From the NCBI GenBank assembly GCA_009840285.1, contig VXOF01000046.1:1-41379 (forward strand): a DNA stretch of 41,379 nt. The letters are read 5' to 3'. The stretch comes from Nitrospira sp. SB0662_bin_26. Lineage in GTDB: Bacteria > Nitrospirota > Nitrospiria > Nitrospirales > UBA8639. The notes beneath the pieces were generated by a model. The model was not told where the DNA came from and did no database searches. It was given only the letters and a program-made list of their open reading frames with translations. Below, piece by piece: positions 2 to 36,244 of this stretch (within the stretch, counting starts at the first letter, position 1; each line of letters starts with the position of its first letter). The translations under genes were made by a program, and so were the position numbers.

Positions 2-841
2 GGATGGTTTTTGCTGAGTTACCATTTCTGGGGCTCCTCGGCCATGGTGGTGATGGTGTTCGCCCACATGTCGCAAGTGTTCCTGTGGGGAGCCTATAAG
101 AAACCCAGGGAACTGATTTGGCTGGTCGGGCTGGCCCTCTTCGGACTGGTCATGGCATTCGGCTTCACGGGCTACCTGCTCCCATGGGATCAACGGGCGT
201 ATTGGGCCACGGTCGTGGGTGTCGAGATCATGGATAAGACCCCGATCGTTGGAGATTTCCTGAGTCGATTTTTGAAAGGGGGACCGACCCCGGGTCAAAT
301 GACCCTGAGCCGGTTCTTTACCATTCACGTGATGATCTTGCCTGCGGCGTTAATGGGTCTGGCCGGTCTCCATCTCTTCCTGTTCCGAAAAGCCGGACCC
401 GCGGGTCCCTTCCGTGGAACTCCCGAACAAATCAAGGCGAAGACGGATTATTTCTTTCCCAGACAAATCTGGAAAGATATCGTGGCCATGGCCACGGTCT
501 TCCTGATTATTTGCACGTTGTCGTTTATCGAGCCGGTGGTGTTGTTGGAAGAGGCCACGCCTGACCCGGGGGACTATCATCCGGAACCGGAATGGTACTT
601 TCTGTTTCTTTTCCAGCTGTTGCGATTAAAGATTTTTGGCGGAGAATTCGGTCAGTTTCTGGGAGCCGTCGCGATTCCCGGAGCATTTATGGGGTTCCTC
701 GCGGCCTTGCCTTTTCTTGACAGGAGTCCTGAACGGAATATTTTCAAACGGCCGATTGCGTTGATCGGTTGGATTGCCATCATGGCGATGATTTTAATTT
801 TCACGGTTTCCGCGATTCTGAATAGAGAATTTCTGGATTAA
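2..841 (+). CDS. Cytochrome b of a bc/b6-type complex III (5' partial)
   Basis: This is the membrane quinol-oxidising cytochrome b of a complex III. The reading frame is open to the left window edge, so the N-terminus lies outside; the first in-frame start-like codon at 11 is inside the protein. Counting from that codon, haem-ligand histidine pairs are visible at 5/19 and 106/121. The 14 and 15 spacing is the b6 pattern. The Qo-site PEWY motif is at 193-196, and the C-terminal (subunit IV-like) helices are fused on the same chain, as in bc1. GFTGYLLPWDQ at 51-61 is typical of the family. It starts an operon-like run, with only 5 bp before the next gene. A Rieske protein would be expected upstream, out of view. 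The family is clear; the partner enzyme is inferred. Confidence 0.93.
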   Translation, partial: GWFLLSYHFWGSSAMVVMVFAHMSQVFLWGAYKKPRELIWLVGLALFGLVMAFGFTGYLLPWDQRAYWATVVGVEIMDKTPIVGDFLSRFLKGGPTPGQMTLSRFFTIHVMILPAALMGLAGLHLFLFRKAGPAGPFRGTPEQIKAKTDYFFPRQIWKDIVAMATVFLIICTLSFIEPVVLLEEATPDPGDYHPEPEWYFLFLFQLLRLKIFGGEFGQFLGAVAIPGAFMGFLAALPFLDRSPERNIFKRPIALIGWIAIMAMILIFTVSAILNREFLD

Positions 842-846
842 CGATC

Positions 847-1788
847 ATGTCGAACGCGAAACTCGGTTTGCTGGTCGCATGGCCAACCTTCTGGACAGGT
901 TTTCCTCTGAAACTGGTCATGGCCTTGCTCATGTTGGCGGCCGGGGTCCATCCGTGGGAGGGCGTTGGGCTTGAGGCGTTGCTGGTTCTTTCCATTCCCA
1001 TTGACATTTGGGCGCTCGGCCTGTGCTCCCGGACCGTTTTTCTCGAACGGTTGAGCGTGGACCCTCCCAAGGGGACGGGCCTTCGCTTGTGGGGGCTGTG
1101 GGCAATTTTTTCCGTGGTCTATCTTCCCCTGTTGTTCATGATCGTAAGCGGAGTCAAGTCCCTGGCTCAATCCGCGGTCCATGCCACGGTGCATTTCGTC
1201 GAAGAAAACGTCATCGTGATTCCGATTGCGGAAAAAATCAGCCTGGAATTGGTGATGTGGGGACTGCCGGCCACCATCGTCCTCATCGTCCTGGTGTATG
1301 GCTGGTTGTTCGGCTTGGGCGCCTTGGCGAACCGCTTTGTTCGCGCGTCTACGCCGGTCGAGGAGGCATTTCAGGACATCGTCTCGAAATGGGATCTCCT
1401 CCGCATTCCTCGAGATCAACCGCTTTTGCTGACGGCCTTTACAGGAACCGGTGTCGTGCTGATCATGTTGTTTTGGGGTTTGCTCCCCGTGAGTACGCCA
1501 CATCCTCATGAAGAATACGAATTCGTGAATGTGAAAAAGGCGGAAGAAAAGATTGTTCCGAAAAAGGTCATCAAAAGCGCCGAGCAGGTCCTGGCTCGTG
1601 CCGAAGCCACGTTGAAAGAGTTGGAAAAAGACAATCCCGCGGGGGAAACGGCGAAAGGGGAGAAAGTAGCGGTGGGCCAGGAGAAGTCGGTGCCCCAGGC
1701 GACACCGGCGGCTGCCAAGAAACCGGCGGCAACGGGTACTACGGGGTCCGACGGGCCTGACCACGACCATGGCGATCATCAGCATTGA
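847..1788 (+). CDS. Unknown multi-helix membrane protein with charged, His-rich tail
   Basis: I do not recognise a named family. The 313-residue protein has about five hydrophobic segments (roughly 12-36, 40-58, 78-105, 135-160 and 193-218). They are followed by a soluble tail of about 95 residues rich in Lys, Glu and Ala that ends in a histidine/aspartate cluster (DHDHGDHQH). The tail could bind metal or pack against a partner, but that is inference. The gene begins 5 bp after the cytochrome b stop and is followed by the small lipoprotein and the bd-like gene, so it is probably an accessory or structural subunit of the same respiratory complex. Confidence 0.85.
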   Translation: MSNAKLGLLVAWPTFWTGFPLKLVMALLMLAAGVHPWEGVGLEALLVLSIPIDIWALGLCSRTVFLERLSVDPPKGTGLRLWGLWAIFSVVYLPLLFMIVSGVKSLAQSAVHATVHFVEENVIVIPIAEKISLELVMWGLPATIVLIVLVYGWLFGLGALANRFVRASTPVEEAFQDIVSKWDLLRIPRDQPLLLTAFTGTGVVLIMLFWGLLPVSTPHPHEEYEFVNVKKAEEKIVPKKVIKSAEQVLARAEATLKELEKDNPAGETAKGEKVAVGQEKSVPQATPAAAKKPAATGTTGSDGPDHDHGDHQH

Positions 1789-1811
1789 GAATCGCCGATG
1801 TTTGAAGAGGG

Positions 1812-2042
1812 ATGATGCGACTGGCGGCGATGTGCTTGGCGATGGCGTTGAGCGCATGTGTGGGCAATCCGACGTTTGATGACGCGCACCTGTTGCTCAA
1901 TAGCGTGTTGGACGGGGCGTGCAATCAACCGTCGTTCAAGCGCCCGTTACAGCCCCATGAGTATGGAACGTACTCGAAGGAAATGATGATTTTGCGGGGG
2001 ACCTGTCAAAGCATCGCGCCGCTGTTACCACACAACTATTGA
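1812..2042 (+). CDS. Small predicted lipoprotein in the respiratory operon
   Basis: This 76-residue protein has a short hydrophobic N-terminus ending in a lipobox-like LSAC (Cys16), so it is probably exported and lipid-anchored. The mature part has two further cysteines (38 and 65) that could form a disulfide. Function is unknown. It lies 23 bp after the His-tail membrane gene and 7 bp before the bd-like gene, in the same direction. A second ATG immediately after the first is an alternative start. Its position suggests a small subunit or assembly factor of the complex. Confidence 0.7.
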   Translation: MMRLAAMCLAMALSACVGNPTFDDAHLLLNSVLDGACNQPSFKRPLQPHEYGTYSKEMMILRGTCQSIAPLLPHNY

Positions 2043-2049
2043 GGGTACG

Positions 2050-3933
2050 ATGAAACGGTTCAATGAGGGCTCACACATGAAAAGCCACGGCATAATCGAC
2101 AATCTGAAGTCCCTAGTGCCAACGGTGAAACCCTCGTCCCTCTTCGGATGGAGTGTCTTTTGGGCGCTCGTGCTTCTCCCGGCGCTTGTCTGGGCCCAGG
2201 ACGCGGCCACCCAAGCGATGTCCGTCGAATATCGGGACATTCCGGGACTCGGAAGCCGCAACGTGGTCTGGGTCGTGGCCCAGCAGCATTTGCTGCTCGC
2301 CGGGTTCGTATTGGGTGTGCCGATTTTTGCCTGGGTGTGCGAAATCGTAGGGTGGAAGACCAAGGAAGCCCGGTACGACAAACTCGCAAAAGAGTTTACC
2401 AAGCTCCTGACGTCCGCGTACGCCACGACGGCCCTGTTTGGAGGCATTCTGCTCTTTTTGCTGATCGGGCTGTACCCGAAGCTCATGGCGTATTTGTCCG
2501 ACATCTTTTTCCCGTCCTTCATCGTGTATTGTCTGCTGTTCCTGTTGGAAACCGTCACGCTGTACCTGTACTGGTACGGATGGGACGCCATGCAGGGGAA
2601 TAAGAAGACGTTCCACCTGTTTTTGGGATTCCTGCTGAACGTCTTTGCCCTGGGTATCATGATCGTCCCCAACGCCTGGGCCACGTTCCAGGCGAGCCCG
2701 GTCGTGGTGGCGGAGGGCACGGCGATCGAGCGGGCATGGGCGGCCACGTGGAATCCCACGTGGTGGCCGGTCAACATTCATCGACTGATTGCCAACGTCG
2801 TCTTGGGCGGGTTTATTTGCGGCGCCTATGCCGGTATCCGGTATCTCCTGGCGGCCAGCCAGGAGGAACGGGAGCACTACGATTGGATGGGCTACGTCGG
2901 AAACTTCATCGGCGTGTTCGGTATGCTTCCCCTTCCCTTCGCCGGGTATTGGCTCATGCGCGAGATCTATCAGTACAACCAGCAAATGGGCATTACCCTC
3001 ATGGGTGGATTTCTGGCCTGGCTCTTCATTCTCCAGGCGATGCTCATCGGGGTGCTGTTCCTCGGAGCCAATTACTATTTCTGGATGGGTATTACTTACC
3101 GGATTCCCGGCTCCGAGCGATCGTACAGACGACCGATCCTTGCCATGCTGGTCGTACTCATGGTGTGCCTGGGCGTCTGGATGACCCCCCACTCTCTGGT
3201 GGCCAGTCTTGAAGAAGCCAGAAAAATGGGGGGGACCCACCACCCGCTGCTTGGGGTGTTCGGAGTGATGTCCGCAAAAATGACAGTCGCGAATCTCATG
3301 ATCCTGGTCACATTCATGAGTTTCATCATGTATTGGCGGGCCGGAAAGCAGGAAACGGCCGGGTGGGCGAAGATCGCCAAATCCGTGATGGGCGCCTTGC
3401 TGGTGATCGCGGGCATCGCGGTCATCGTGCTCGGGGTCTGGGGGTATTTCGTGCCGGCCATCATACGGATCAACTATTTCTCCGTTGCCCAGGTGTTGAT
3501 CGTCTTGTTTGTCATGGTGACCTTCACACCCCTGACGGCCATCCTGATGAAAAGCGCCAAGACCACCACGGAAATGGTGTGGGGACAAATGCCGATCCGG
3601 GCCGGGTATTCATTGGTATCCAACGCGGTCATGGTGATCCTGTTGATGTCGCTGATGGGCTATGCCCGGTCGTCGTCCCGGGTTCACTGGCATATCTACG
3701 GCGTCATGAGAGACACCTCGGATTACGCCTATTCTCCCGCCTTGGGATACGCGGCCGCCTTCATGTCCCTGAACACGTTTGTGTTCTGTTTGCTGGTGGC
3801 GTTTATCTTTTGGGTCGCCACGATGGGGGATAAGGGGAAGAAAACCCCGGACCAGGAACAACCCGAACCAGCCAAGATCCCGGCGGGTGTGACGCCGGCC
3901 ATGGCGGGCGGCGCCCCGCGGGAGCAGGACTGA
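2050..3933 (+). CDS. Cytochrome bd-like 14-helix membrane protein
   Basis: This 627-residue integral membrane protein has about fourteen hydrophobic segments by eye. The first (about 27-47) resembles a signal anchor. It looks like the large bd-like proteins known from Nitrospira, which have been proposed as unusual terminal oxidases, rather than classical CydA, which has about nine helices. Candidate haem or metal ligands include His near residue 75 (QQHLLL), His in NIHR at the start of helix 6, and a VHWH motif near the C-terminus; none is proven. The C-terminal 30 residues are polar and proline-rich. Two starts are possible, ATG at 2050 and ATG at 2077, each preceded by a GAGGG-type ribosome site. 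It could be a quinol oxidase, a cytochrome c oxidase or a quinone-reducing subunit; the sequence does not decide. Confidence 0.85.
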   Translation: MKRFNEGSHMKSHGIIDNLKSLVPTVKPSSLFGWSVFWALVLLPALVWAQDAATQAMSVEYRDIPGLGSRNVVWVVAQQHLLLAGFVLGVPIFAWVCEIVGWKTKEARYDKLAKEFTKLLTSAYATTALFGGILLFLLIGLYPKLMAYLSDIFFPSFIVYCLLFLLETVTLYLYWYGWDAMQGNKKTFHLFLGFLLNVFALGIMIVPNAWATFQASPVVVAEGTAIERAWAATWNPTWWPVNIHRLIANVVLGGFICGAYAGIRYLLAASQEEREHYDWMGYVGNFIGVFGMLPLPFAGYWLMREIYQYNQQMGITLMGGFLAWLFILQAMLIGVLFLGANYYFWMGITYRIPGSERSYRRPILAMLVVLMVCLGVWMTPHSLVASLEEARKMGGTHHPLLGVFGVMSAKMTVANLMILVTFMSFIMYWRAGKQETAGWAKIAKSVMGALLVIAGIAVIVLGVWGYFVPAIIRINYFSVAQVLIVLFVMVTFTPLTAILMKSAKTTTEMVWGQMPIRAGYSLVSNAVMVILLMSLMGYARSSSRVHWHIYGVMRDTSDYAYSPALGYAAAFMSLNTFVFCLLVAFIFWVATMGDKGKKTPDQEQPEPAKIPAGVTPAMAGGAPREQD

Positions 3934-4000
3934 AACGCAAACGGGGCGTGATTGAGAACCTATTGACGTTAGCATTTCCGAACCGGAGCGAGAGGAACCC

Positions 4001-4609
4001 ATGAGTGAAGTCGTATTACTCCAATTGATCGGTCTTACGGTCGTAGGACTCGGAATCTGCATCCTGCTCTTCATCAAGGGAAAATTCCTCAGAGTGGTCG
4101 GCTTCGTGGTGATCGTATTGGGGACGTTTACCCTGATTGCGTTGGGGGTGCCGCAGATGGCCTCCCTGCCTCCGGCAATCGAGACCTTTGATATTGCCGA
4201 AGTCAAAACGCCGGATGACCTGGCCGCGATCGGTCAAAAGATTTTCTTCAGCAAAGGCCAGTGTGCCTTGTGTCATTCCATCGGCCCCAGTGAATCCGCC
4301 AGGTGTCCGGATTTGAAAGGCATCGGGGCGAAACTCGCTCCGGAATTCATCTATGAGAGTCTCACCGATCCTCAGGCCTATATTTATCTGGATTTCAGGC
4401 ATGAAGGCCTGCCCAAGGAATATCCGGCACGGATGCCCTATATCCACAAGAATCCGATTGCCTTGTCGCAACAAGAGATATATTCGGTCATTTCCTTTCT
4501 CCAGAAAATGAGCGGGGAACCCATTAGCGTCAAGATCGAAGACGTGATGAATATCGGCAAGGCAAGCGAGGTGGAGGTCGCTTCCCTCGCGGCCGAAGGA
4601 GCACCTTAA
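4001..4609 (+). CDS. Membrane-anchored monohaem cytochrome c (CALCH)
   Basis: This 202-residue protein has two N-terminal hydrophobic segments (about 3-25 and 31-51) and then a periplasmic class I cytochrome c domain. The haem motif is CALCH at 88-92 and the likely sixth ligand is Met145 in the YPARMPY segment. A GAGAGGA ribosome site precedes the ATG. It lies 67 bp after the bd-like gene and 15 bp before another anchored cytochrome c, so it probably shuttles electrons within the same complex. A short acidic region follows the cytochrome fold. Confidence 0.92.
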   Translation: MSEVVLLQLIGLTVVGLGICILLFIKGKFLRVVGFVVIVLGTFTLIALGVPQMASLPPAIETFDIAEVKTPDDLAAIGQKIFFSKGQCALCHSIGPSESARCPDLKGIGAKLAPEFIYESLTDPQAYIYLDFRHEGLPKEYPARMPYIHKNPIALSQQEIYSVISFLQKMSGEPISVKIEDVMNIGKASEVEVASLAAEGAP

Positions 4610-4624
4610 CCAAAAGGGTGAATT

Positions 4625-5350
4625 ATGAAAGGTCCTCTTGCGAAAACGGCGATCCTGTTGGTGGGCATGTATGTGTTTCTCAAGTTCGTACTCCCGCTGG
4701 TCACGGCACCGCTCCCGGCCAGTCTGATTTTCCTGTACCTGGCCCTGACCCTTGCCTCTGCGATGATTTTCTATACCATGAGCGGGGGCAGTCTCGATGA
4801 ATTCATGGGGCCGGTCGGGCGATTCCTCACCGGCTCGGGACAGGCGGGTGTTGCCGGGACCGCGCGGATTCTGGTGTTTGTGGTGTTCCCCCTGTTGGTG
4901 GGGTGGCAAACGTACACCAGACTCGCCCCGAGCGATATGCCGCCGGCGGAAAATCGAACCATTCATCCCGCGCCTCCGGGCGAGTTTGTCGGGCTGGCCA
5001 ACCCGTATCCGACGACGCCGGAAAACGTCATGATGGGGAAGGGTCTCTATGCGGCGTTCTGTTCGCCCTGTCACGGAGCCAATTTCGACGGGAAAGGCCC
5101 GGCAGCGGTGGGTTTCAATCCACCTCCGGCGAATTTCAGCGATCCGGGAACCATCGCTCAATTGCAGGAATCCTATCTTTTCTGGCGGATCAAAAAAGGC
5201 GGCGTCGGGCTGCCGGTCGAAGCCATGCCCTGGAAATCAGCCATGCCGCGATGGGAAGTGGAATTGCCGGACGAATGGATCTGGAAAATCATCATGGGTG
5301 AATATGACGGCGCCGGCCAGTCTCCACGGACCTGGGAGGAAGAGGAATAA
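4625..5350 (+). CDS. Membrane-anchored monohaem cytochrome c (CSPCH)
   Basis: This 241-residue protein has three N-terminal hydrophobic segments (about 8-28, 30-51 and 80-97), followed by a cytochrome c domain. The haem motif is CSPCH at 146-150, and Met207 in KSAMPRW is the likely distal ligand. The C-terminus is acidic (EEEE). It follows the previous cytochrome by 15 bp. Having two cytochromes with multi-helix anchors side by side suggests fixed subunits of one membrane complex rather than free carriers. Confidence 0.92.
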   Translation: MKGPLAKTAILLVGMYVFLKFVLPLVTAPLPASLIFLYLALTLASAMIFYTMSGGSLDEFMGPVGRFLTGSGQAGVAGTARILVFVVFPLLVGWQTYTRLAPSDMPPAENRTIHPAPPGEFVGLANPYPTTPENVMMGKGLYAAFCSPCHGANFDGKGPAAVGFNPPPANFSDPGTIAQLQESYLFWRIKKGGVGLPVEAMPWKSAMPRWEVELPDEWIWKIIMGEYDGAGQSPRTWEEEE

Positions 5351-5428
5351 GGAACGGGTTGAGGTCGCGCCCTCGTAGGTCCGACAACCGTCGGACGTGT
5401 CGAGGGGAAGGATCCAAGGAGCAGGAAT

Positions 5429-6265
5429 ATGGGATATAAGAAGATCTTCAACGTCGCACTTGGGCTCACCCTCATGGTGACGGGAGTCGGGGCTTCCTGC
5501 GTGTTCGCGAGCGACCCGCCGCCGGAAGGCGGAGCCGGAAGTGTGGCCGTTCGTCTGTTCTTGACTGAGGGAGCCGTCCCTGCGGATGATCCGAACGCCG
5601 CCGTGTGGAACACGATCCAGCCGGCAGAATTCAAGTTGGCTCCACAAGTGCATTGGCCGGACCGCATTCAGGAAGTCACGGTGAAGTCCGTCAATGTCCG
5701 CGGAATCCATAATGGCCAGGATCTGGCGATGCTTCTGGAATATGCCGACCCGTCCGAAGATGCCGCCGATGCCGCCGCCATCGAGTTTATGGTCGGCGAT
5801 AAAATGGCCCACTTCGCCCATGGGCAGGAAATGCTCCAGGTCGAGGGGGGAGACGTCAACATCTGGTATTGGAAAAAAGAACACGGCAAAGCCACCGATA
5901 TGACGGCCAAGGGGTTCAAGACGCTTCGGCCGCAGGAAAACCAGAACGTTTCGGCAACGGGAGCCTGGCAGGATGGAATCTGGCGCGTGGTCTTCTCCCG
6001 GCCCTTGCAAACTGGCGATGAACAGGACGTACAAGTCACGCCCGGTGAATGGCGAAACGTGGCGTTCGCGTTTTGGGACGGGGAAATCGTGGATGGGGCC
6101 GTGAAAGAAAAAGGTTCGCAGAAAGCCGTTTCTTCATGGTGGTATTTTCGGGCCGAACCGCCACCGGACAATTCCATTTATGGATACGTCGTGTTGGGCA
6201 TCGTGCTTGCTGCCGGTTTTGAGTTTTTCCTGGTGAGAAAAATTCGGAGAGGGAACGAATCATGA
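5429..6265 (+). CDS. NxrC/EbdC-like haem-binding subunit, membrane anchored
   Basis: The 278-residue protein has a signal peptide (about 1-28), a central domain resembling the ethylbenzene dehydrogenase gamma subunit family (EbdC/DdhC/NxrC, b-type haem), and one C-terminal hydrophobic helix (about 250-271) followed by basic residues. In the family such subunits pass electrons between a molybdenum enzyme and the quinone or cytochrome pool using His and Met/Lys haem ligands. Here no molybdenum subunit is adjacent; the neighbours are cytochromes c, and the gene overlaps the next one by 4 bp (ATGA). It is therefore probably a haem subunit of the respiratory complex, not of nitrite oxidoreductase itself. 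An AAGGAGCAGG ribosome site precedes the start. Confidence 0.8.
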   Translation: MGYKKIFNVALGLTLMVTGVGASCVFASDPPPEGGAGSVAVRLFLTEGAVPADDPNAAVWNTIQPAEFKLAPQVHWPDRIQEVTVKSVNVRGIHNGQDLAMLLEYADPSEDAADAAAIEFMVGDKMAHFAHGQEMLQVEGGDVNIWYWKKEHGKATDMTAKGFKTLRPQENQNVSATGAWQDGIWRVVFSRPLQTGDEQDVQVTPGEWRNVAFAFWDGEIVDGAVKEKGSQKAVSSWWYFRAEPPPDNSIYGYVVLGIVLAAGFEFFLVRKIRRGNES

Positions 6266-7344
6266 AGGAAGAACGACGCATGCAGCGGGTACTGGGCAAG
6301 GTCGCCGTCGTGGTCGTCGCCGTGTTTGCCGTGACGAGCGGCTGCGCCTTGTTTGAAAATGAACGGACGGCGAAAGGCCGGAAACTCTATAATCATTACT
6401 GCATGCACTGTCACGGGGAAAGCGGACAACAGCAGGAAGGCTTCAATTGGGGACGCATGCCGGACCCCCGTCCGCGCGACCTGTCGGAATCCGAAGCGAT
6501 GTCGACCTTTTCCGACAAGGAAATCTTCGACACGATCTCCCGAGACATGCGGGATACCTCGTTGCAGGAAGTGCTCGACGATGAAAATTACTTCGCGGTG
6601 TCGACGATGCCGACCTTCAAATATACCCTGTCCGAAGAGGAATTGTGGGCCGTGGTCGGCTACGTCCGGACGCTTCACGGCGGGTCGTTGACGTTTGACG
6701 TCGACGGCCGGAAAGCCGAGTTGGAGTCCCGGTTGCAGGCCGTGACGACGGAACACGATCAGGCCAAACAGGTCATGGATGAAGCGCTGGCAAAACAGGA
6801 AGCCGAAGAAGAAGCCAGGGCTGCCGCAGAGGAAGCAGCCGAAGAAGATGACGAAGATATGGATATGGAAGACGACGAGGACGATCTAGAGGACTACGAA
6901 GAGGAAGAAGAGGAAATCGTGCTTCCCGAAGAAGAGGCCTATGAAAAAGTGGCGGAACAATTTGAAGCCGCCAAGGCCGCCGTGGAAAATTTCTCCAAAC
7001 GTCCGAAAATGTCTCAAATCGCCCGTCCGGATCTGACCGTGGCGGAAGAGGAACGGGCCGCCCTGCAGGATAAAGGGAAAAACCTGTACTTCAACAAATA
7101 CGGCTGTAACGGGTGTCACAGTATCGGAGACGTCGGCGGTCTGGTGGGGCCGGCCTTGGACCGTGCTGGCTTCCGTCTCAACGACACCTGGGTCTATCGC
7201 TGGGTCCGTTACCCGCAAGGCATGAAAAAGCACACGCGCATGCCGAACCTGGGTCTTGATGACCCGGATGCGCGAGCCGTAACGGCGTATCTCGACACTC
7301 TGCGCGCACCAAAACCCGACAAACCCATCCCCCCGCCTGAATAA
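6262..7344 (+). CDS. Dihaem cytochrome c lipoprotein with acidic linker
   Basis: The 360-residue protein begins with a hydrophobic segment ending in TSGC (Cys28), a lipobox, so it is probably lipid-anchored outside the inner membrane. Two cytochrome c domains follow. The first has CMHCH at 47-51 with Met116 (STMPTF) as a likely ligand. The second has CNGCH at 282-286 with Met327 (TRMPNL). They are joined by a helical, extremely acidic linker (about 150-245, with runs of Asp and Glu around 194-225). It overlaps the NxrC-like gene by 4 bp, pointing to translational coupling. A second in-frame ATG at 6280 is an alternative start. It is the last gene of the respiratory run. Confidence 0.92.
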   Translation: MKEERRMQRVLGKVAVVVVAVFAVTSGCALFENERTAKGRKLYNHYCMHCHGESGQQQEGFNWGRMPDPRPRDLSESEAMSTFSDKEIFDTISRDMRDTSLQEVLDDENYFAVSTMPTFKYTLSEEELWAVVGYVRTLHGGSLTFDVDGRKAELESRLQAVTTEHDQAKQVMDEALAKQEAEEEARAAAEEAAEEDDEDMDMEDDEDDLEDYEEEEEEIVLPEEEAYEKVAEQFEAAKAAVENFSKRPKMSQIARPDLTVAEEERAALQDKGKNLYFNKYGCNGCHSIGDVGGLVGPALDRAGFRLNDTWVYRWVRYPQGMKKHTRMPNLGLDDPDARAVTAYLDTLRAPKPDKPIPPPE

Positions 7345-7681: not shown

Positions 7682-8575
7682 CTACAGCGTTCCTACCCAG
7701 ATCCCGACCAGAAGAACGAGGCCGATGATCGTGTGTTGTTTGAACATGGCAAACGCCTCAGCGGGGGAGACCTCACCGCGCAGGCGAAGGACTTGCTGGC
7801 TCAAGAAGCCCGCGACGCCGGCCAGTCCTCCATAAAACGCCGGATTGAGATTTTCCAGCCAACCCGCCGTTGCCAGGAGTCCCAGCATGAGCGTCTCGAT
7901 GATGCCCACGGCGATCCATACGTGAGAACCGAAGAGAATCGCCGATGAGTTCACCCCGATACGAAGGTCGTCCTCAATGTCCTGGAGCGCATAAATGGTA
8001 TCGTAGGCCAAGGCCCAGCAAATCGTGGCGGAAAAGAGGAGCCACGTCGCAGGATCGAGCTGATTGCGAACGGCAGCCCAAGCCATCACGGCGCCCCATC
8101 CGAACGCCAGCCCGAGAAAGAGTTGAGGGACGCGAAAGAATCGTTTCGTAAAGGGATAGATCGCGGCCAATGCCAAGGCGACGGGGCCGAGCCGTATGGT
8201 CAGCGGATTCAGGAAAAACAGGAGGCTCACGGCTATGGCAAGGAGGACGCCGAGGAACAGGATGGCGTGCCAGGGGCGAAGGGCCCCGCTGGCGAGAGGC
8301 CGGGTTTGGGTGCGGGTGACTCGCCGGTCGAATGATCGATCAGCCAAATCGTTCATGATGACTCCCGCGCTTCGCATGATGAACGACCCCGCCACGAATA
8401 GGACAATCAGCAGACCGGCGGGCTGGCCTTTTGACGCCAGGACCAGCGCCCACAAGGTTGGAATCATAAGCAGGAGCGTGCCCGTTTGATTCGAGAGCCT
8501 GATTAGAGAACACAGGTGTGCAAACGAGAACCGGGGAATTGATGCCGAAGCAGATTTGCCACCAGGGGAGGACAT
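7682..8575 (-). CDS. ubiA: UbiA-family 4-hydroxybenzoate polyprenyltransferase
   Basis: This is a membrane prenyltransferase that joins a polyprenyl diphosphate to an aromatic acid in quinone synthesis. Both Mg-diphosphate motifs are visible: NDLADRSFD (about 75-83) and YDTIYALQDIEDD (about 191-203), followed by the family-typical NSSAILFG. About eight to nine hydrophobic helices surround them. I chose ATG at 8575 (297 residues); the frame extends to a TTG at 8611. If the organism makes menaquinone by the futalosine route, as expected for Nitrospira, this could be the MqnP-type enzyme rather than a ubiquinone enzyme. The 3' end abuts repeat copy A. Confidence 0.9.
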   Translation of the reverse strand: MSSPGGKSASASIPRFSFAHLCSLIRLSNQTGTLLLMIPTLWALVLASKGQPAGLLIVLFVAGSFIMRSAGVIMNDLADRSFDRRVTRTQTRPLASGALRPWHAILFLGVLLAIAVSLLFFLNPLTIRLGPVALALAAIYPFTKRFFRVPQLFLGLAFGWGAVMAWAAVRNQLDPATWLLFSATICWALAYDTIYALQDIEDDLRIGVNSSAILFGSHVWIAVGIIETLMLGLLATAGWLENLNPAFYGGLAGVAGFLSQQVLRLRGEVSPAEAFAMFKQHTIIGLVLLVGIWVGTL

Positions 8576-8655
8576 CGTTTCACGGTAGCGTAGCAGAAAA
8601 AATGGTGTCAATCATGCCCGACGCGGGTCTCGTTCGGGCAAGGATTGAACGAAAG

Positions 8656-8955: not shown

Positions 8956-9228
8956 ATGAAATTGAGAGCCGGCAATTTTGTCGTGTATGAGAAAGCAAAA
9001 ACCTCAACACACCCCAGCCCGCGAGCCGAGCGCGTTTTTCCCTCTCGCCACGGCGATACCTATTCTTACGTGATCAAGAAATTCTGGAAGGTCCTCAGGG
9101 TTTTTGAAGATGACACCATCGAAGTCGAAACCCGTCGCGGGAAACGGCACACCTTGTCACCCGGCGACCCTCGTCTGCGCAAAGCCGGACTGTGGCAGCG
9201 GGTATTCTTCAAAGATCGGTTTTTTTGA
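8956..9228 (+). CDS. Small basic protein of unknown function
   Basis: This 90-residue protein is rich in Arg and Lys, with alternating beta-like segments (GNFVVYEKAK, KVLRVFEDDTIEVETRRGKRH) that suggest a small SH3- or KOW-like barrel. That is only an impression. I chose ATG at 8956 because a GAAGAGGA ribosome site precedes it; an upstream GTG at 8914 would add 14 residues. It lies alone between the tRNA and an oppositely oriented gene. No function can be assigned. Confidence 0.7.
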   Translation: MKLRAGNFVVYEKAKTSTHPSPRAERVFPSRHGDTYSYVIKKFWKVLRVFEDDTIEVETRRGKRHTLSPGDPRLRKAGLWQRVFFKDRFF

Positions 9229-9244
9229 AGACCGAGCCCTTGTG

Positions 9245-9272
9245 GCGAGAGATTCTTCCTTCCTACTCTCGC
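9245..9272. terminator. Possible hairpin terminator
   Basis: GCGAGAG (9245-9251) pairs perfectly with CTCTCGC (9266-9272) across a 14-nt loop, 16 bp after the small basic protein. There is no T-tract, so intrinsic termination is uncertain. Confidence 0.3.
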
Positions 9273-9329
9273 AAAGAAGAAACCACGGCTAATCGAGTGT
9301 CCGGGAAATTGAGGGTCGTCCTGCGGTGA

Positions 9330-9584
9330 TTACGTGTCCGCATGTTTCTTGCCGGACCCCAGCGCGGAAAAAACGACGCCTCCGACCAGGACTCCGACGA
9401 CAAACACCATACCGAAAACCAAACCGGCCTGCACTTCCGACCAATTGCGCAGCAGGTTGGTCATCATGGGAGACGGAGGGAGATTGACGTGCCCTTCCCA
9501 GCCCAAGGCTTCATCAAGGGTGGGATGTTCCGCCGATGGTTGACGATCGGCCTGATTCATCGATCCTGAAGTGAAAGAGGTCAT
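9330..9584 (-). CDS. Small single-helix membrane protein
   Basis: This 84-residue protein has a polar N-terminal half and one hydrophobic helix (about 52-76, rich in Val and Gly), followed by a short basic tail. The start at 9584 is supported by a GGAG ribosome site eight bases upstream. No family is recognised. It faces the small basic protein gene at its 3' end and is preceded by the LapA-like gene on the same strand. Confidence 0.65.
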   Translation of the reverse strand: MTSFTSGSMNQADRQPSAEHPTLDEALGWEGHVNLPPSPMMTNLLRNWSEVQAGLVFGMVFVVGVLVGGVVFSALGSGKKHADT

Positions 9585-9695
9585 GATATTTGCTCCATGA
9601 TGGCTGTGGGCATCGTTGAATGGCTGGCTGATATGGTGTCAGTCTCCCGGGTCCGTGTCAAGGTCTCCAGGCGACGTCCGGGGCCGGATTGACGT

Positions 9696-9995
9696 TCAGT
9701 CGAGATATGGAGTCTGGTGTTGCTGTGGTCGGGAAACGTCTGACGGTGGCGTTCCTTCCAATTCCGTCACCCGTTTAGTGAGTTCCGCGATTTCCTTTGA
9801 TTTCCGTATGCGCGCCGGCATGGAAGCCATGATATGAATCACGATGCCCAGGCAAAGGGTGGTCAGCAACACTAGGACGAGCGACCCTTCAAACGTCCAC
9901 TCGAAAAATTGGATGGAAACCGTCTGGTCGTTCTGGAGGGAAAAGGCGACGGTCAAAAAAACGACAACGAGGGTTGCGATGAGTGGAAAGGGCAT
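9696..9995 (-). CDS. LapA-domain membrane protein
   Basis: This 99-residue protein has two hydrophobic helices (about 3-20 and 38-57) separated by a short loop containing the LapA-like pattern QNDQTVSIQFFEW. A basic, helical cytoplasmic tail (ARIRKSKEIAELTKRVTELE) could form a coiled coil. This is the usual LapA (DUF1049/LapA_dom) architecture, which in E. coli is linked to lipopolysaccharide assembly with LapB; no LapB is adjacent here. I chose ATG at 9995 because the frame upstream has no family similarity. An AGGGG-type ribosome site lies about ten bases ahead. Confidence 0.8.
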   Translation of the reverse strand: MPFPLIATLVVVFLTVAFSLQNDQTVSIQFFEWTFEGSLVLVLLTTLCLGIVIHIMASMPARIRKSKEIAELTKRVTELEGTPPSDVSRPQQHQTPYLD

Positions 9996-10221
9996 GGGTC
10001 GGCACCCCTGGCAGTATCGAAGGGTTACTTGAGTATATACCGAATATGCCGTTGACGTACACCCCGCGCCGAAAGCCCGCGGATTCCGGGATGAAAGGCA
10101 CCGTTCTCCACGGACCGTCGGCGGGCAAGTTTCGTTGATGCTGACGAGGCGCATTTGGTAAGCTCGCTTTCCACCTTTTTTCCTTTCATTCACCGTTGCA
10201 GTGACTATCGAGGGACGAACA

Positions 10222-11772
10222 ATGGGCAAGTTGAACCATGCGTTGATCAGTGTGTCTGATAAGACGGGTGTCGTGGAGTTTGCCAGAGGTCTGGTCGAAC
10301 TGGGGGCCACCATTCTTTCAACGGGCGGCACAGCCAACGCCATACGCACGGCCGGCGTTTCGGTGACGGAAGTCGCTTCACATACCGGATCTCCGGAGAT
10401 TCTGGGCGGCAGGGTCAAAACCCTGCATCCCAAGATTCACGGGGGCTTGTTGGGCCGGCGAGGGCTGGCCGAAGACGTCCGGCAAATGCAGGAGCAGGGG
10501 ATTGAGCCCATCGACGTGGTGGTCGTCAACCTCTATCCCTTCGAGTCGACCATTGCCAAACCGGATTGTACCTTCGAGGATGCCATCGAGAATATCGATA
10601 TCGGCGGCCCGTCCATGCTCCGGTCCGCCGCCAAGAATCACGAGGATGTCGTGGTCGTGGTGGACCCGGGCGACTACGGTCGTGTACTTGAAGCCTTGCA
10701 GTCCGGAACGGTCCCCGTATCGTTGCGTCGTGAATTGGCCCGGAAAGTGTTTCAGCATACCTCGCGGTACGACGGTCTGATCGCAAATTATTTAAGCCGG
10801 CAGGGCGAGACGGCCGATAAATTTCCCGCGTCCCTGTCTCTGACATATGAACGGGCCGAAATCCTGCGATACGGTGAAAATCCGCATCAGGAAGGAGCTT
10901 TTTATCGGGAGATCGGCAGTACGGAACCCTCGATTTCCCTTGGCCGGCAGCTGCATGGTAAGGCCATGTCCTACAACAATTACCTGGACGCCAACTCGGC
11001 GTTGGAGTTGGCTAAAGAATTCAGCGACACAGCCGTCGTCATCATCAAACACAATAACCCCTGTGGTGTGGCACTTGGAGCGACGCCGGTCGAGGCCTAC
11101 CGGAAAGCCAGGGAAACCGATCCGGTCTCCGCGTTCGGAGGGGTGATTGCCTGCAACCGCCCCGTGGATGCGGACATGGCCAAAGAAGTGACGTCCACGT
11201 TCGTCGAAGTCCTGATCGCGCCTGCGTTTACCGACGAGGCCCTGGCTGAATTGCAACGGAAAAAGGACTTGCGGTTGTTGACCGTCGGCTCTCTCGAAAG
11301 CCAAACCCGCGACGGGTATGACTTGAAGAAACTTGTCGGGGGATTGATCCTGCAGGATCGGGACCTGGGTGCCCTGGCGGAAGTGAAAGCGCTGGCGGTG
11401 CCGACCCAACGGAAACCCACGGATGAGGAATACGCGGCCTGTGCCTTTGCGTGGAAGGTGTGCAAGCACGTGAAGTCCAACGCCATCGTGTTTGCCAATG
11501 CCACGCAGACCGTAGGAGTCGGGGCCGGCCAGATGAGCCGGGTGGATTCCGTCAAACTGGCCGAGATGAAAGCCAATCTGCCGGTCAAGGGCTGCGTCAT
11601 GGCCTCAGACGCTTTTTTCCCGTTCCGTGACGGGCTCGACGCGGCCGTTCAAGCGGGCGTGACCGCGGTGATCCAACCGGGAGGCAGCATCAGGGACGAA
11701 GAGGTGGTCAAGGCCGCGGATGAACAGGATGTGGCGATGATCTTGACGGGCATGCGCCACTTCCGACATTAA
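10222..11772 (+). CDS. purH: Bifunctional AICAR transformylase / IMP cyclohydrolase
   Basis: PurH carries out the last two steps of purine synthesis, converting AICAR to IMP in the cytoplasm. The N-terminal IMP cyclohydrolase/MGS-like domain (about 1-195) contains STGGTA and [10 protein letters not shown]. The C-terminal transformylase domain contains the hallmark KHNNPCGVA near residue 280. At about 516 residues it is a normal family length. I chose ATG at 10222, which has a GAGGG ribosome site; a GTG at 10201 would add seven residues. It is followed by purD in the same direction, 169 bp away. Confidence 0.98.
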
Positions 11773-11941
11773 GCCGTGATTTATTGCACCATTGGGCGCA
11801 TGGCGGCGTTGTGTCCTCGCTCAACCCTCGACTATCTGATTTGATATGTCTCGGGTCTCGCTACGGGACGCCTTGCCCTGCATCCCGCTATCACAATAAA
11901 TCAGAGGTTCCTTGAGCCGTGTTTCGCAGACGTTGGCTTGA

Positions 11942-13210
11942 ATGAAGATTTTGGTTATCGGCAGTGGCGGGCGCGAGCATGCATTGGCCTGGAAACTCGC
12001 ATCCAGCCTCCGGGTGAGCAAGCTCTATTGCGCGCCGGGGAACGCGGGAATCAGCCAACTGGCCACGTGCGTGCCGATTCCAGCCACGGATCTGGCTAGT
12101 CTGAAAGCGTTCGCCGAGGAGAAGGCCATCGATCTCACCGTGGTCGGCCCCGAAGCGCCCTTGGCGTTGGGGATTGCGGACCTGTTTCGAGAAAGCAAAC
12201 TCAAGGTCTTCGGCCCGACCAGGAACGCCGCCAAGATCGAATCCAGTAAAGCATTTGCCAAGAACCTGATGATGCGCCAGGGGATTCCGACCGCGGAGGC
12301 GAGTACCTTCGAGAACGTCCGTCCCGCGCTGGACTACCTGGAGCAATGCGCGTTCCCCATCGTAGTCAAAGCGGACGGGTTGGCCCAGGGAAAAGGCGTG
12401 GTCGTGGCCCGGACAGCGCAGGACGCCAAGGACGCGGTGGTCAACATACTCGAGCATCGAGCCTTCGGCGACGCCGGTAACCGGGTCGTCATTGAGGAAT
12501 GTCTCGAAGGAGAGGAACTGACCCTGATGGCCTTTGCCGATGGGAAAACTGTCGTCCCCATGCTGGCCGCTCAGGATCACAAGCGCCTCGGGGAGGGCGA
12601 TACCGGCCCCAATACCGGAGGCATGGGGGCCTATGCGCCGGCTCCGCTGGCCACGCCGGCCTTGCGCTATGCGATCATGCGAGACGTGTTGCATCCTGCG
12701 ATCGAAGGGCTGTCGCGCGTGGGCAGTCCGTTTTTTGGGGTCTTGTACGCGGGAATCATGGTCAAGGACGGGACGCCTTACGTACTGGAATTCAATGCAC
12801 GGTTCGGTGATCCCGAGACGCAAGTCGTGTTGCCGTTGTTGAAAACGGACCTCGCCGATGTTCTCGAAGCCGTCGTGGAACATCGGTTGGATCAGATCCA
12901 TCTCGACTGGTCAGAGGAGTCGGCGGTGTGTGTCGTCATGGCGTCAGGCGGGTATCCCGGGAAGTATGTGAGCGGCCTGCCGATCACCGGGCTTCCGGAT
13001 GCTGCCGCCGATGACCGGGTCTCGGTCTTCCACGCCGGGACAGCCTTAAACGGTCAAGACGTCGTAACGGCCGGGGGGCGAGTGTTGGGAGTGACGGCTT
13101 GGGGATCCTCCCTCAGAGCGGCGCATGACCGGGCCTATGATGCGGGGAGGCGCATCGCGTTTGAAGGGCAATATTTCCGCACCGATATTGCCGCGCGAGT
13201 CTTGACGTAA
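11942..13210 (+). CDS. purD: Phosphoribosylamine-glycine ligase
   Basis: PurD makes GAR from phosphoribosylamine, glycine and ATP. The 422-residue protein has the expected order: an N-terminal preATP-grasp domain beginning KILVIGSGGREHALAW, the ATP-grasp core with VVKADGLAQGKGVVVA (about 138-153) and the metal-binding segment LEFNARFGDPETQ (about 280-292), then the C-terminal domain. No strong ribosome site precedes the ATG. With purH it forms a small purine cluster. Confidence 0.98.
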   Translation: MKILVIGSGGREHALAWKLASSLRVSKLYCAPGNAGISQLATCVPIPATDLASLKAFAEEKAIDLTVVGPEAPLALGIADLFRESKLKVFGPTRNAAKIESSKAFAKNLMMRQGIPTAEASTFENVRPALDYLEQCAFPIVVKADGLAQGKGVVVARTAQDAKDAVVNILEHRAFGDAGNRVVIEECLEGEELTLMAFADGKTVVPMLAAQDHKRLGEGDTGPNTGGMGAYAPAPLATPALRYAIMRDVLHPAIEGLSRVGSPFFGVLYAGIMVKDGTPYVLEFNARFGDPETQVVLPLLKTDLADVLEAVVEHRLDQIHLDWSEESAVCVVMASGGYPGKYVSGLPITGLPDAAADDRVSVFHAGTALNGQDVVTAGGRVLGVTAWGSSLRAAHDRAYDAGRRIAFEGQYFRTDIAARVLT

Positions 13211-13236
13211 ACCAGCTCCGCTCGGGTAAGACGTTC

Positions 13237-13902
13237 GTGGCCAAAATCCTTCCGGTTCCAGCAGACCCCTCTCCCTCCTTTTTTGTTCCGATTGCGGATC
13301 TCGTTCATCGAGGCGGCCTGCTGGCCGTCGGGACGGAAAGTTCGTACGCCCTGGCCGCATCGGTGTCCAATCCCACGGCTCTGGACCGCGTGATCGAGGC
13401 GAAAGAACGGCCTTCCGGGAAACCCCTTCTCGTGCTGATCGGGGAACGGAGCCAACTTGATGCCCTGGCCGGGTCCGTTCCATCCTGGTTCCACGCGATG
13501 ATCGACGAATTCTGGCCAGGTCCGTTGACCGTCATCGTTCCGGCCAAACACGGGCTTTCTCCCGTGCTGACGGCCGGGACCGGGACCATCGGGATTCGGG
13601 AACCCGCGCCGGCGTTCCTCAGGGCCTTATTACGTCACACGGGTCCGTTGACCGGGACGAGCGCCAATCGATCCGGGCAACCTTCGTGCCTGACCGCCGA
13701 CGAGGTGGAAGCTTCACTGGGTCACGACGTCGATCTGATCTTGGATGCCGGTCCTGCCCCGGGGAACCGGCCTTCCACCCTGTTGAGCGTGGTGGATGAG
13801 CCGGTCATCCTCCGGGCAGGCCCCGTGTCCGCGGAAGAGATTCAAGGCGTGTTGTCGCAAATCGGGCTTCTTGTTCCCGTCAAGGAGACTGCCGTAGAAT
13901 AA
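13237..13902 (+). CDS. Sua5/YciO/YrdC-family threonylcarbamoyl-AMP synthase
   Basis: This 221-residue single-domain protein is of the Sua5/YrdC type, which makes threonylcarbamoyl-AMP for the t6A modification of tRNA position 37. Family hallmarks are [14 protein letters not shown] near 31-44, KERPSGKPL (about 56-64), [12 protein letters not shown] (about 91-102), [11 protein letters not shown] (about 115-125) and TSANRSGQP (about 140-148). The start is a GTG at 13237, 26 bp after purD. Membership of the TsaC rather than the YciO branch is likely but not proven. Confidence 0.9.
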
Positions 13903-13933
13903 AGAAAGGAACGAGTGTAGAGAAAGGCTTACG

Positions 13934-14965
13934 ATGATCGACCTGCGTAGTGATACCGTTACCAAGCCGACACCGGGCATGCGAGAAGCCATGGCGCAGG
14001 CCGAGGTCGGCGACGACGTGTATGGTGAAGACCCGACGGTGAATGCCCTGGAGGCCGAGGCTGCCCGCGTGTTGGGCAAGGACGCGGCCCTGTTCGTGCC
14101 CACCGGGGTGATGGCGAATCAACTGTGCCTTCGTCTCCATACCCGTCCGGGCGACGAAGTACTCGTGGAAGGCACGGCCCATATCATTCGGTATGAAGGG
14201 GGGTCGGCCTCGGCCTTGTCTCAGGTCCAATTATGCTGCATCGACGGCGACCGGGGCCTTTTGACCGCCGATAGCGTGCTTGCGGCCATCCGGCCTAAAG
14301 ACGTCCATAATCCCCCGACGACGCTGCTGTGCCTGGAACAAACGCACAATTTCGGAGGGGGGTCGATCTACCCCTTGTCCACGATCCGGGAAATCACGAA
14401 GTTGGCCGGAGACCAGGGGCTTGCGTTGCATTTGGACGGCGCCCGGTTGTTCAATGCGGTCGTGGCCACCGGGGTATCCGCCGACGAATTTGCGCAGCCG
14501 TTCGATACCGTGTCGTTTTGCCTGTCCAAGGGGTTGGGGGCTCCGGTCGGTTCATTGATCACCTCGACCAGGGACCGGATTGCCAAGCTTCGGCGTTTGC
14601 GAAAAATGTTCGGTGGTGGCATGCGGCAAGCAGGCATTCTCGCGGCTGCGGGCCTCTATGCTCTGGAGCACCACGTGACCCGGCTTCAGGAGGACCATGA
14701 GAATGCCAAAAGTTTCGCCCTGCAACTGCAACAGATCCCAACGGTGTACGTGGACCCCGACCATGTCGAAACGAATATCGTCGTGTTCGAGGTCGTGCGA
14801 AGCGACCGTTCGACGCAGGAACTCCTGCAAGCGTTCAAGGAAACCGGGGTTTTGTTGAATGCCATCGGCGATCACCTGTTTCGTGCGGTCACCCATTTGG
14901 ACGTGTCGAATGCGGACGTGGAACAGGCGACGCATAAAATCGGCAAAGTGCTGGCGGCCGCCTAG
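13934..14965 (+). CDS. ltaE: Low-specificity threonine aldolase
   Basis: This 343-residue PLP enzyme cleaves threonine or allo-threonine to glycine and acetaldehyde. It begins [13 protein letters not shown], the typical N-terminus of the family. It carries the [10 protein letters not shown] motif (Asp/Arg binding PLP, about 166-175) and the Schiff-base lysine in [13 protein letters not shown] (about 195-207). It follows the YrdC-like gene by 31 bp, so both threonine-related genes may be co-transcribed. A short repeat-like double palindrome follows its stop. Confidence 0.95.
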
Positions 14966-14973
14966 GCTGTATT

Positions 14974-15045
14974 TGTAGCGGCGCCATCTTATGGCGCAGT
15001 CTTCTCTTGGCAGCCTTGCTTGGCCGCATAAGATGCGGCCCTACA
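14974..15045. repeat. Double palindrome bounded by TGTAG/CTACA
   Basis: Two palindromic arms (GGCGCCATCTTATGGCGC and GGCCGCATAAGATGCGGCC) sit as inverted copies of each other between TGTAG (14974) and CTACA (15045). The whole can fold as one cruciform. It lies just after ltaE and may also act in transcript ending. Confidence 0.6.
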
Positions 15046-15124
15046 ACTACGAAGAGGCCGCTTGGCCGTATGACGCAAGTCCCTGGTCGTGAACCGGGAT
15101 GCTGTCGCTACACGGTGTTTGGTT

Positions 15125-15331
15125 ATGGCAACACGTGATCGAGATTGGCCGGGGTATACGGTGTGGTTCTTTTGCCCCGGTTGCGAGCGGCTCTGGACGC
15201 ATCAAGGCCCTGATGTGGTCGCCTTGGACCGGAACATGGCCTTGGGCCCGGCTGTGGCCAGTGAAGGGATTCCCAGCCAAACGTGTGTGAACTGTGACGG
15301 GTCGAAAAAAGCCACGGCTGCAGAGATTTGA
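15125..15331 (+). CDS. Possible small zinc-ribbon protein
   Basis: This 68-residue reading frame has two Cys pairs, CPGC and CVNC, about 36 residues apart, compatible with one zinc site. It begins with an ATG that lacks a convincing ribosome site; a GTG at 15089 would lengthen it by 12 residues. It lies between convergent neighbours, with the repeat element on its left. It may be real, as the Cys pairs are not expected by chance, but I assign no function. Confidence 0.4.
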   Translation: MATRDRDWPGYTVWFFCPGCERLWTHQGPDVVALDRNMALGPAVASEGIPSQTCVNCDGSKKATAAEI

Positions 15332-15368
15332 GTCGCCTACCACGACGGCTGTAGGGGCGGTGTGCGCC

Positions 15369-15794: not shown

Positions 15795-15801
15795 GCAAGT
15801 C

Positions 15802-35535: not shown

Positions 35536-35603
35536 CACCTAATCGCAGGCGGACGAAAAGACCCTCTTCCCTGAAGGACCCGTAACGAGGAAAACCTGAA
35601 ATT

Positions 35604-36188: not shown

Positions 36189-36195
36189 ACCACCG

Positions 36196-36233
36196 CTCCC
36201 TTTGGGCGAGTGCACGGTGAGGGAAAAAGGAGA
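36196..36233 (+). repeat. Degenerate GGGCGAGTG...GGTGAGGG repeat
   Basis: GCTCCCTTTGGGCGAGTGCACGGTGAGGG is a decayed copy of the element at 28045. It runs directly into AAAAAGGAG, the ribosome site of the transaminase gene. Confidence 0.4.
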
Positions 36234-36244
36234 ATTTCACGCTC

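What the first reader, a model, noticed from the sequence alone, without database searches (positions are those of the whole stretch)
2..7344. Respiratory operon joining bc/b6-type cytochrome b with a bd-like protein and an NxrC-like subunit
Cytochrome b, a 14-helix bd-like protein, two multi-helix-anchored cytochromes c, an NxrC/EbdC-like haem subunit and a dihaem lipoprotein are tightly spaced, with small overlaps. This would be an unusual hybrid complex. It could run quinol to oxygen, or drive electrons backward from cytochrome c to quinone during nitrite oxidation.
Basis: partly seen in the sequence, partly recalled or inferred. Interest (0 to 1): 0.75.

Follow-up and report, generated by a model that had tools for sequence, protein, structure and literature searches.

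The report
Nitrospira combined complex III/IV operon (3' part)
This is the tail of a conserved respiratory operon in nitrite-oxidising Nitrospira that packs the quinone-handling bc complex and the unusual bd-like oxygen reductase side by side; the cluster is already in the literature, but how its machine works has never been shown biochemically.

Summary
Eight ORFs on one strand (2-7344): truncated cytochrome b, a five-helix protein without a family, a small lipoprotein, a CydA-like protein, two membrane-anchored cytochromes c, an EbdC/NxrC-like haem-b protein and a dihaem cytochrome c. The rest (anchored cytochrome c, second bd-like protein, third anchored cytochrome c, Rieske protein) lies on another contig of the same genome, about 114 bp away by synteny with a complete relative. 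The full order is kept in 57 of 58 Nitrospirales loci with enough upstream sequence.

It is orthologous to the CIII_1 / bd-like_1 / bd-like_2 (putative complex IV) / alt_NxrC_1 cluster of N. moscoviensis (PMC6606698), where a III-IV supercomplex touching NXR was already proposed. In this genome and 12 of 13 same-genus genomes no COX1 or CydB is found, and it holds the only cytochrome b found here.

Most likely it is the cell's combined reversible quinone:cytochrome c oxidoreductase and cytochrome c-dependent O2 reductase. Direct quinol-to-O2 transfer by the bd-like protein is unlikely. New here: the operon is two separable modules; the five-helix protein is an enlarged one-helix complex III neighbour; one relative carries two MrpD-like pumps inside it.

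The parts
2..841 (+). cytochrome b (bc/b6 type), C-terminal 279 aa of about 370; 5' end cut by the contig end
   Evidence: Pfam Cytochrome_B / Cytochrom_B_N_2 / Cytochrom_B_C; haem-b His pairs 14 and 15 residues apart and PEWY conserved in 78 sequences; only PF13631 match in this genome
847..1788 (+). p2: 313-aa protein, 5 predicted helices, His-rich tail; no known family or fold; C-terminal third (about residues 180-275) is homologous to a 91-138-aa one-helix protein that follows cytochrome b in relatives
   Evidence: no Pfam, NCBIfam or PDB sequence match; orthologue at this place in the Nitrospirales loci; short form in G200, G206, G266, G295, G381, G039, G045; model pLDDT 75.7 with no convincing fold match
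1812..2042 (+). small lipoprotein (76 aa), lineage-specific
   Evidence: lipobox at residue 13; matched in only one (L060) of the 80 fetched loci
2050..3933 (+). bd1: CydA-superfamily bd-like protein, orthologue of N. moscoviensis bd-like_2 (putative complex IV)
   Evidence: Cyt_bd_oxida_I E=6e-19; Z about 18-21 to ten CydA entries; H80, H189, H244, H381, H397, H398, H548 conserved, H546 in most; two cyt c genes separate it from altC as described for bd-like_2
4001..4609 (+). cycA: monohaem cytochrome c with 2 N-terminal helices
   Evidence: Cytochrom_C E=2e-7, one CxxCH
4625..5350 (+). cycB: monohaem cytochrome c with 3 helices
   Evidence: Cytochrome_CBB3 E=4e-7, one CxxCH
5429..6265 (+). 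altC: orthologue of alt_NxrC_1; EB_dh/DMSO-reductase-II gamma-like haem-b subunit with signal peptide and C-terminal helix, no CxxCH
   Evidence: EB_dh E=1e-20, TIGR03477 E=3e-30 but under its curated cut-off; M121, M135, K232 conserved in 76 sequences
6262..7344 (+). dihaem cytochrome c, probable lipoprotein (conserved Cys28), overlaps altC by 4 bp; last gene of the operon
   Evidence: two CxxCH; Cytochrome_CBB3 E=1e-17; C28 conserved

Best explanation
The window holds the 3' two-thirds of the Nitrospirales complex III/IV operon: cycL - bd2 - cyc3 - Rieske - cytochrome b - p2 - bd1 - cycA - cycB - alt_NxrC_1 - dihaem cytochrome. SHOWN: gene content, order, conservation, intact cofactor ligands of Rieske and cytochrome b, orthology to the published N. 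moscoviensis cluster, and absence of other known terminal oxidases and of a second cytochrome b in this genome. INFERRED: the products form one or two associated membrane complexes. Electrons from nitrite enter from periplasmic NXR through cytochrome c and possibly the docking subunit altC. They run down through the anchored cytochromes c to bd1, which with bd2 reduces O2 as a cytochrome c-dependent member of the bd superfamily. The Rieske/cytochrome b part returns a share of the electrons uphill to (methyl-plasto)quinone, driven by proton motive force, for CO2 fixation, and runs forward when low-potential donors are used.
For: Same order in 57 of 58 loci with at least 7.5 kb upstream and 61 of 61 with at least 4.3 kb downstream. 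Contigs C78 and C110 abut with about 114 bp missing by synteny with complete genome G010. Rieske C239/H241/C261/H264, cytochrome b haem ligands and PEWY conserved. No COX1 and no CydB in this genome and 12 of 13 same-genus genomes, only one cytochrome b, so the bd-like proteins are the only known candidates for O2 reduction. bd1 has a full CydA-type fold and the haem-type His equivalent to Geobacillus CydA H21/H186. Unlike paralogues bd3 and bd4 it keeps both His residues that Nitrospinae and bd-like_3 proteins replace by Gln and Phe. In N. moscoviensis the whole region is strongly transcribed during nitrite oxidation.
Against: No biochemistry was found for any part. Operon conservation does not prove a physical complex. 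In some relatives (G039, G045, G381) bd1, cycB and altC are missing from the operon while bd2 and complex III stay, so the parts are not obligately joined. G039, G042, G045 and G048 lack both a bd1 orthologue and COX1/CydB, so bd1 cannot be the only possible O2 reductase in the order. The nxrA gene was not found in this MAG, though it is present in close relatives.
Confidence: 0.6

Rival explanations
1. Two separate complexes that merely share a transcript: a complex III (Rieske, cytochrome b, p2, bd2 and its cytochromes) and an independent bd1-cycA-cycB-altC complex, linked only by diffusing cytochrome c.
For: The two gene blocks occur apart: block 1 without bd1/cycB/altC in G039, G045, G381; block 2 has a free-standing paralogue, bd3-cyc-cycB'-altC2, elsewhere in the genome. 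Trees separate bd1, bd2 and bd3/4 cleanly.
Against: Fixed order and tight spacing across the order and in other families of the class.
Confidence: 0.25
2. The bd1 block is not an oxidase but a reverse-electron-flow device that passes electrons from cytochrome c/NXR to quinone, as proposed for the related bd-like_3 cluster; O2 is reduced by another bd-like protein.
For: The fold is also close to NrfD-type quinone-binding subunits of alternative complex III (Z 14-17); Lucker 2013 suggests an ACIII-like role for bd-like proteins.
Against: Rieske/cytochrome b in the same operon already supply that function; the residues that differ from bd-like_3 are those argued to be cofactor ligands; published loss of the quinol site.
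Confidence: 0.1
3. A quinol:O2 supercomplex in the forward direction, like the actinobacterial bcc-aa3 machine.
For: Complex III and a putative oxidase with wiring cytochromes c are encoded together; Nitrospira also use H2, formate and stored glycogen.
Against: Nitrite electrons enter at cytochrome c level, so this would serve only the minor low-potential route.
Confidence: 0.05

Closest known systems
CIII_1 / bd-like_1 / bd-like_2 (CIV) / alt_nxrC_1 region of Nitrospira moscoviensis (Mundinger 2019, PMC6606698)
   Same: Same gene set and order (L076): Rieske, cytochrome b, two bd-like proteins, two cyt c genes between bd-like_2 and alt_nxrC_1, alt_NxrC with signal peptide and one helix.
   Different: Nothing of substance; the present genome adds a 76-aa lipoprotein between p2 and bd1 and has a His-rich p2 tail.
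N. defluvii NIDE0901-type terminal oxidase, OR-N CydAA' (PMC10579370, PMC12342949)
   Same: Orthologous operon in FP929003 (L091); two CydA-like proteins in one operon.
   Different: Which of bd1/bd2 is OR-N1 or OR-N2 was not tested against the reference tree.
bd-like_3 / alt_NxrC_2 cluster (Nitrospira, Nitrospina, anammox bacteria)
   Same: Same block order bd - cyc - cycB - altC (L053).
   Different: No Rieske/cytochrome b; Gln and Phe in place of His397 and His546; altC2 carries two haem-c motifs.
Manganitrophaceae terminal oxidase TO_2 (PMC9040806)
   Same: Locus L177 (G295) has cycL-bd2-cyc3-Rieske-cytb-p2short-bd1 with the same order and altC, and two MrpD-like proteins (PF00361) as described for TO_2.
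   Different: The window has no MrpD-like subunits; that L177 is TO_2 is inferred from its anatomy, not from a named record.
Canonical cytochrome bd quinol oxidase (CydAB)
   Same: bd1 has the CydA fold (Z about 18-21) and the two N-terminal His ligands.
   Different: No CydB in the genome, no recognisable Q-loop, no GRQPW motif, cytochromes c encoded alongside.

Membership tests
N. moscoviensis-type CIII_1/bd-like/alt_NxrC_1 cluster | Rieske and cytochrome b with two bd-like genes in one region | tested here: met
   bd2 and Rieske on C78, cytochrome b and bd1 in the window, adjacent by synteny
N. moscoviensis-type CIII_1/bd-like/alt_NxrC_1 cluster | two cytochrome c genes between the putative oxidase (bd-like_2) and alt_nxrC_1 | tested here: met
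   cycA and cycB at 4001-5350
N. moscoviensis-type CIII_1/bd-like/alt_NxrC_1 cluster | alt_NxrC_1: signal peptide, one C-terminal helix, no haem-c motif | tested here: met
   helices 9-27 and 250-268, no CxxCH (Table 2 of PMC6606698)
N. moscoviensis-type CIII_1/bd-like/alt_NxrC_1 cluster | products form one supercomplex | not testable with these tools
   needs native gels or cryo-EM; only proposed in PMC6606698
bc1/b6f-type complex III | Rieske 2Fe-2S ligands, four haem-b His, PEWY motif | tested here: met
   conserved in at least 97% of 75-78 sequences
bc1/b6f-type complex III | b6f-specific haem ci cysteine | tested here: inconclusive
   N-terminus is off the contig; in relative L047 the site looks like Ala by eye; no profile alignment was made
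Canonical cytochrome bd quinol oxidase | CydB subunit | tested here: not met
   no PF02322 match in this genome
Canonical cytochrome bd quinol oxidase | GRQPW motif with the Glu haem ligand | tested here: not met
   GRQPW absent from bd1; a low-confidence global HMM alignment pairs it with SRVHW of bd1 and leaves the Glu unmatched
Canonical cytochrome bd quinol oxidase | CydA N-terminal His ligands and CydA fold | tested here: met
   H80 and H244 align with the His of 5doq; all ten top fold matches are CydA (model mean pLDDT only 56)
Haem-copper oxidase | homology to COX1 (PF00115) | tested here: not met
   no PF00115 match in this genome, bd1 included
OR-N CydAA' oxygen reductase | placement in OR-N1/OR-N2 clades of the Murali tree | not tested
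   reference set not available; papers assign Nitrospirales CydA-like proteins to OR-N
DMSO-reductase type II gamma subunit (NxrC/EbdC) | family score above curated cut-off | tested here: inconclusive
   EB_dh above its cut-off (75 vs 33.3 bits), TIGR03477 below (105 vs 170 bits)
DMSO-reductase type II gamma subunit (NxrC/EbdC) | Met and Lys haem-b ligands | tested here: inconclusive
   M121, M135 and K232 are conserved but not mapped onto a solved structure
Manganitrophaceae TO_2 | two MrpD-like subunits in the cluster | tested here: not met
   absent from the window; present in L177

The most novel reading that the evidence does not exclude
The whole operon encodes a single ion-motive-force-coupled machine that splits cytochrome c electrons between O2 (bd1/bd2) and quinone (Rieske/cytochrome b), so that downhill O2 reduction directly pays for uphill quinone reduction inside one complex. 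The MrpD-carrying version in a relative would be the same machine with extra ion pumps, and the enlarged p2 would be the element that joins the two halves.
Probability: 0.12. Interest if true: 0.9.

Novelty: already known. Interest (0 to 1): 0.45.

Why it matters
Nitrospira are major nitrifiers, and how they reduce O2 and lift nitrite electrons to quinone is unresolved. In this small genome the operon seems to be the only known route for both, so it is a compact target. The comparative anatomy gives concrete predictions: which bd-like protein is the oxidase, which block is dispensable, and where p2 sits.

Tried and rejected
Heme-copper oxidase: rejected, no COX1 homology. Canonical CydAB: rejected. 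Solved structures of this complex: none; PDB sequence matches to bd1 and bd2 are only canonical CydA, p2 has none. Fold of p2: no convincing match (Foldseek E above 1, best VIA Z 7.9 to unrelated long-helix proteins). The bd1 model has low confidence (mean pLDDT 56), so ligand geometry was not read from it. Global HMM alignment of bd1 to canonical CydA is weak beyond the N-terminal half. Promoter/terminator scan gave nothing decisive: promoters 5 against 3.0 expected, terminators 16 against 8.6, none clearly splitting the operon. Lucker 2010 and Murali 2021 are not in the paper library. NxrA was not found in this MAG, taken as a probable gap in a 113-contig assembly because same-genus genomes have it. 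An early alignment put another residue opposite H381 in bd2; the more careful one shows bd2 keeps it.
Full report
WHAT IS THERE. The window is contig C110 of a 2.2-Mb, 113-contig genome (98.8% complete). Its first 7344 bases hold eight ORFs on the + strand: cytochrome b (2-841, cut by the contig end), a five-helix protein p2 (847-1788), a small lipoprotein (1812-2042), a bd-like protein bd1 (2050-3933), cytochromes c cycA (4001-4609) and cycB (4625-5350), an EbdC/NxrC-like protein altC (5429-6265) and a dihaem cytochrome c (6262-7344). Pfam and NCBIfam support each assignment except p2 and the lipoprotein, which match nothing. Gaps are 5-78 bp, with one 4-bp overlap. Against a same-genus genome dN/dS is 0.03-0.13 for the seven genes compared: real genes under purifying selection. 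A convergent UbiA-type prenyltransferase gene follows.

THE MISSING FRONT END. A Rieske domain and another bd-like gene lie on contig C78 of the same genome. The C78 end and the window start align 114 bp apart in the complete relative G010. The whole operon reads cycL - bd2 - cyc3 - Rieske - cytochrome b - p2 - (lipoprotein) - bd1 - cycA - cycB - altC - dihaem cytochrome. In 80 named Nitrospirales loci, the upstream block is complete and in order in 57 of 58 with enough sequence, and the downstream block in 61 of 61. N. moscoviensis (L076) and Ca. N. defluvii (L091) are among them.

IDENTITY. Mundinger et al. 2019 (PMC6606698) describe this region in N. moscoviensis: CIII_1, bd-like_1, bd-like_2 as putative complex IV, two cytochrome c genes and alt_nxrC_1. 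They propose a III-IV supercomplex that may contact NXR. By gene order bd1 is their bd-like_2 and bd2 their bd-like_1. A residue test agrees. bd1 has histidines at 381, 397, 398 and 546; the paralogues bd3 and bd4 of this genome have Gln for His397 and Phe or Gly for His546. PMC8026999 reports the Gln and Phe changes for the Nitrospinae-type bd-like protein, whereas one Nitrospira variant keeps all residues. bd2 keeps His381 but lacks 397, 398 and 546. In the class-level relatives G206 and G266, bd1 has Tyr at 546, so that residue is not universal.

ORGANISM. GC is 58.5%. Same-genus genomes are 1.9-3.0 Mb and named matches include MAGs RHO3_bin_20 and Plut_88904. This fits the sponge symbiont genus Ca. 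Nitrosymbion (mean 2.36 Mb, 56.9% GC, four bd-like oxidases, no cbb3; PMC11812461). The genus assignment is an inference.

WHY IT IS PROBABLY THE TERMINAL OXIDASE. This genome has no COX1 (PF00115) and no CydB (PF02322); 12 of 13 same-genus genomes also have neither. PF13631 finds a single cytochrome b in this genome, the one in the window. So the operon carries the only recognisable complex III, and two of only four proteins related to any known O2 reductase. Caution: G039, G042, G045 and G048, in the same order, have neither COX1 nor CydB and also no bd1 orthologue, so another bd-like protein may serve there.

MECHANISM, WITH STATUS. Shown: Rieske ligands C239, H241, C261, H264, cytochrome b His pairs 14 and 15 residues apart, and PEWY are conserved in at least 97% of 75-78 sequences. 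Shown: bd1 has the CydA fold; all ten top matches are CydA entries with Z 18-21 over about 345 residues, followed by alternative complex III and polysulfide reductase membrane subunits at Z 14-17, from a model of low confidence. Shown: H80 and H244 match the Geobacillus CydA histidines. Weakly supported: SRVHW of bd1 replaces the GRQPW motif, which would mean the bd active site is rebuilt. Published: this family lacks the quinol site and probably takes electrons from cytochrome c. Inferred: electrons from NXR pass altC and the anchored cytochromes c to bd1/bd2 and O2, while complex III lifts a fraction to methyl-plastoquinone (E0' about 50-60 mV by measurement in PMC12324825) at the cost of proton motive force. 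That the proteins form one complex is not shown.

COMPARATIVE ANATOMY. A phylum-wide search with a p2 profile (396 genomes) finds full-length p2 only within the order; outside it, and in family f4, matches are short. There p2 is a 91-138-aa, one-helix protein matching only the C-terminal third of the window's p2 (some reading frames there are longer). So p2 looks like an enlarged complex III subunit with extra N-terminal helices, not a separate enzyme. In G200, G206 and G266 the operon is otherwise the same. In G039, G045 and G381 bd1, cycB and altC are missing from it. The bd3 cluster elsewhere in Nitrospirales repeats the order bd - cyc - cycB - altC. The operon therefore behaves as two modules: complex III plus bd2, and bd1 plus its cytochromes and altC. 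bd1, bd2 and bd3/4 are separate, fully supported groups, with bd1 next to bd3/4. In G295 two MrpD-like ion-pump proteins (PF00361, E under 1e-44) sit inside the operon, as reported for the TO_2 complex of manganese-oxidising Manganitrophaceae (PMC9040806). That TO_2 belongs to this operon family is an inference from anatomy.

VERDICT. What remains open, and testable, is whether it is one machine and which way electrons run.

Noticed in passing
L177 (G295:C16) 10040-16623: Two MrpD-like proteins (PF00361) lie between a bd1-cytochrome c fusion and cycB inside the same operon: probably the TO_2 cluster of Mn-oxidising Manganitrophaceae, hence a homologue of the Nitrospira complex III/IV operon with added ion pumps.
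   Followed up: partly
L064 (G022, bin371) about 9625-14159: The only locus without cytochrome b, Rieske and bd2 upstream: just a p2 remnant before bd1. PF13631 finds no cytochrome b in this 78%-complete single-contig genome.
   Followed up: partly
window 7682-8611 (-): UbiA-family prenyltransferase gene convergent with the operon; a candidate for (methyl-)plastoquinone synthesis.
   Followed up: no
window 35032-38082 and 38242-39723: A row of genes that reads like phosphonate synthesis: split phosphonopyruvate-decarboxylase-like ORFs (from the first residues only), class V aminotransferase, nucleotidyltransferase-like ORF, CDP-alcohol phosphotransferase. A 2-aminoethylphosphonate pathway is possible.
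   Followed up: no
L043 (G000:C78) 9153-10097: The operon's Rieske protein has about 100 extra N-terminal residues that look PRC-barrel-like (by eye; no Pfam hit) before the helix and Rieske domain.
   Followed up: no
G039, G042, G045, G048 (family f4 of the order): No COX1, no CydB and no bd1 orthologue, yet bd2 plus complex III are present in G039 and G045 and a bd-like protein with His at the 546 position but Gln at 397 in G039 (L055). Their O2 reductase is unclear.
   Followed up: partly
G002 (same genus), C1:61559-62896: The only same-genus genome with a COX1 match (805-aa frame).
   Followed up: no
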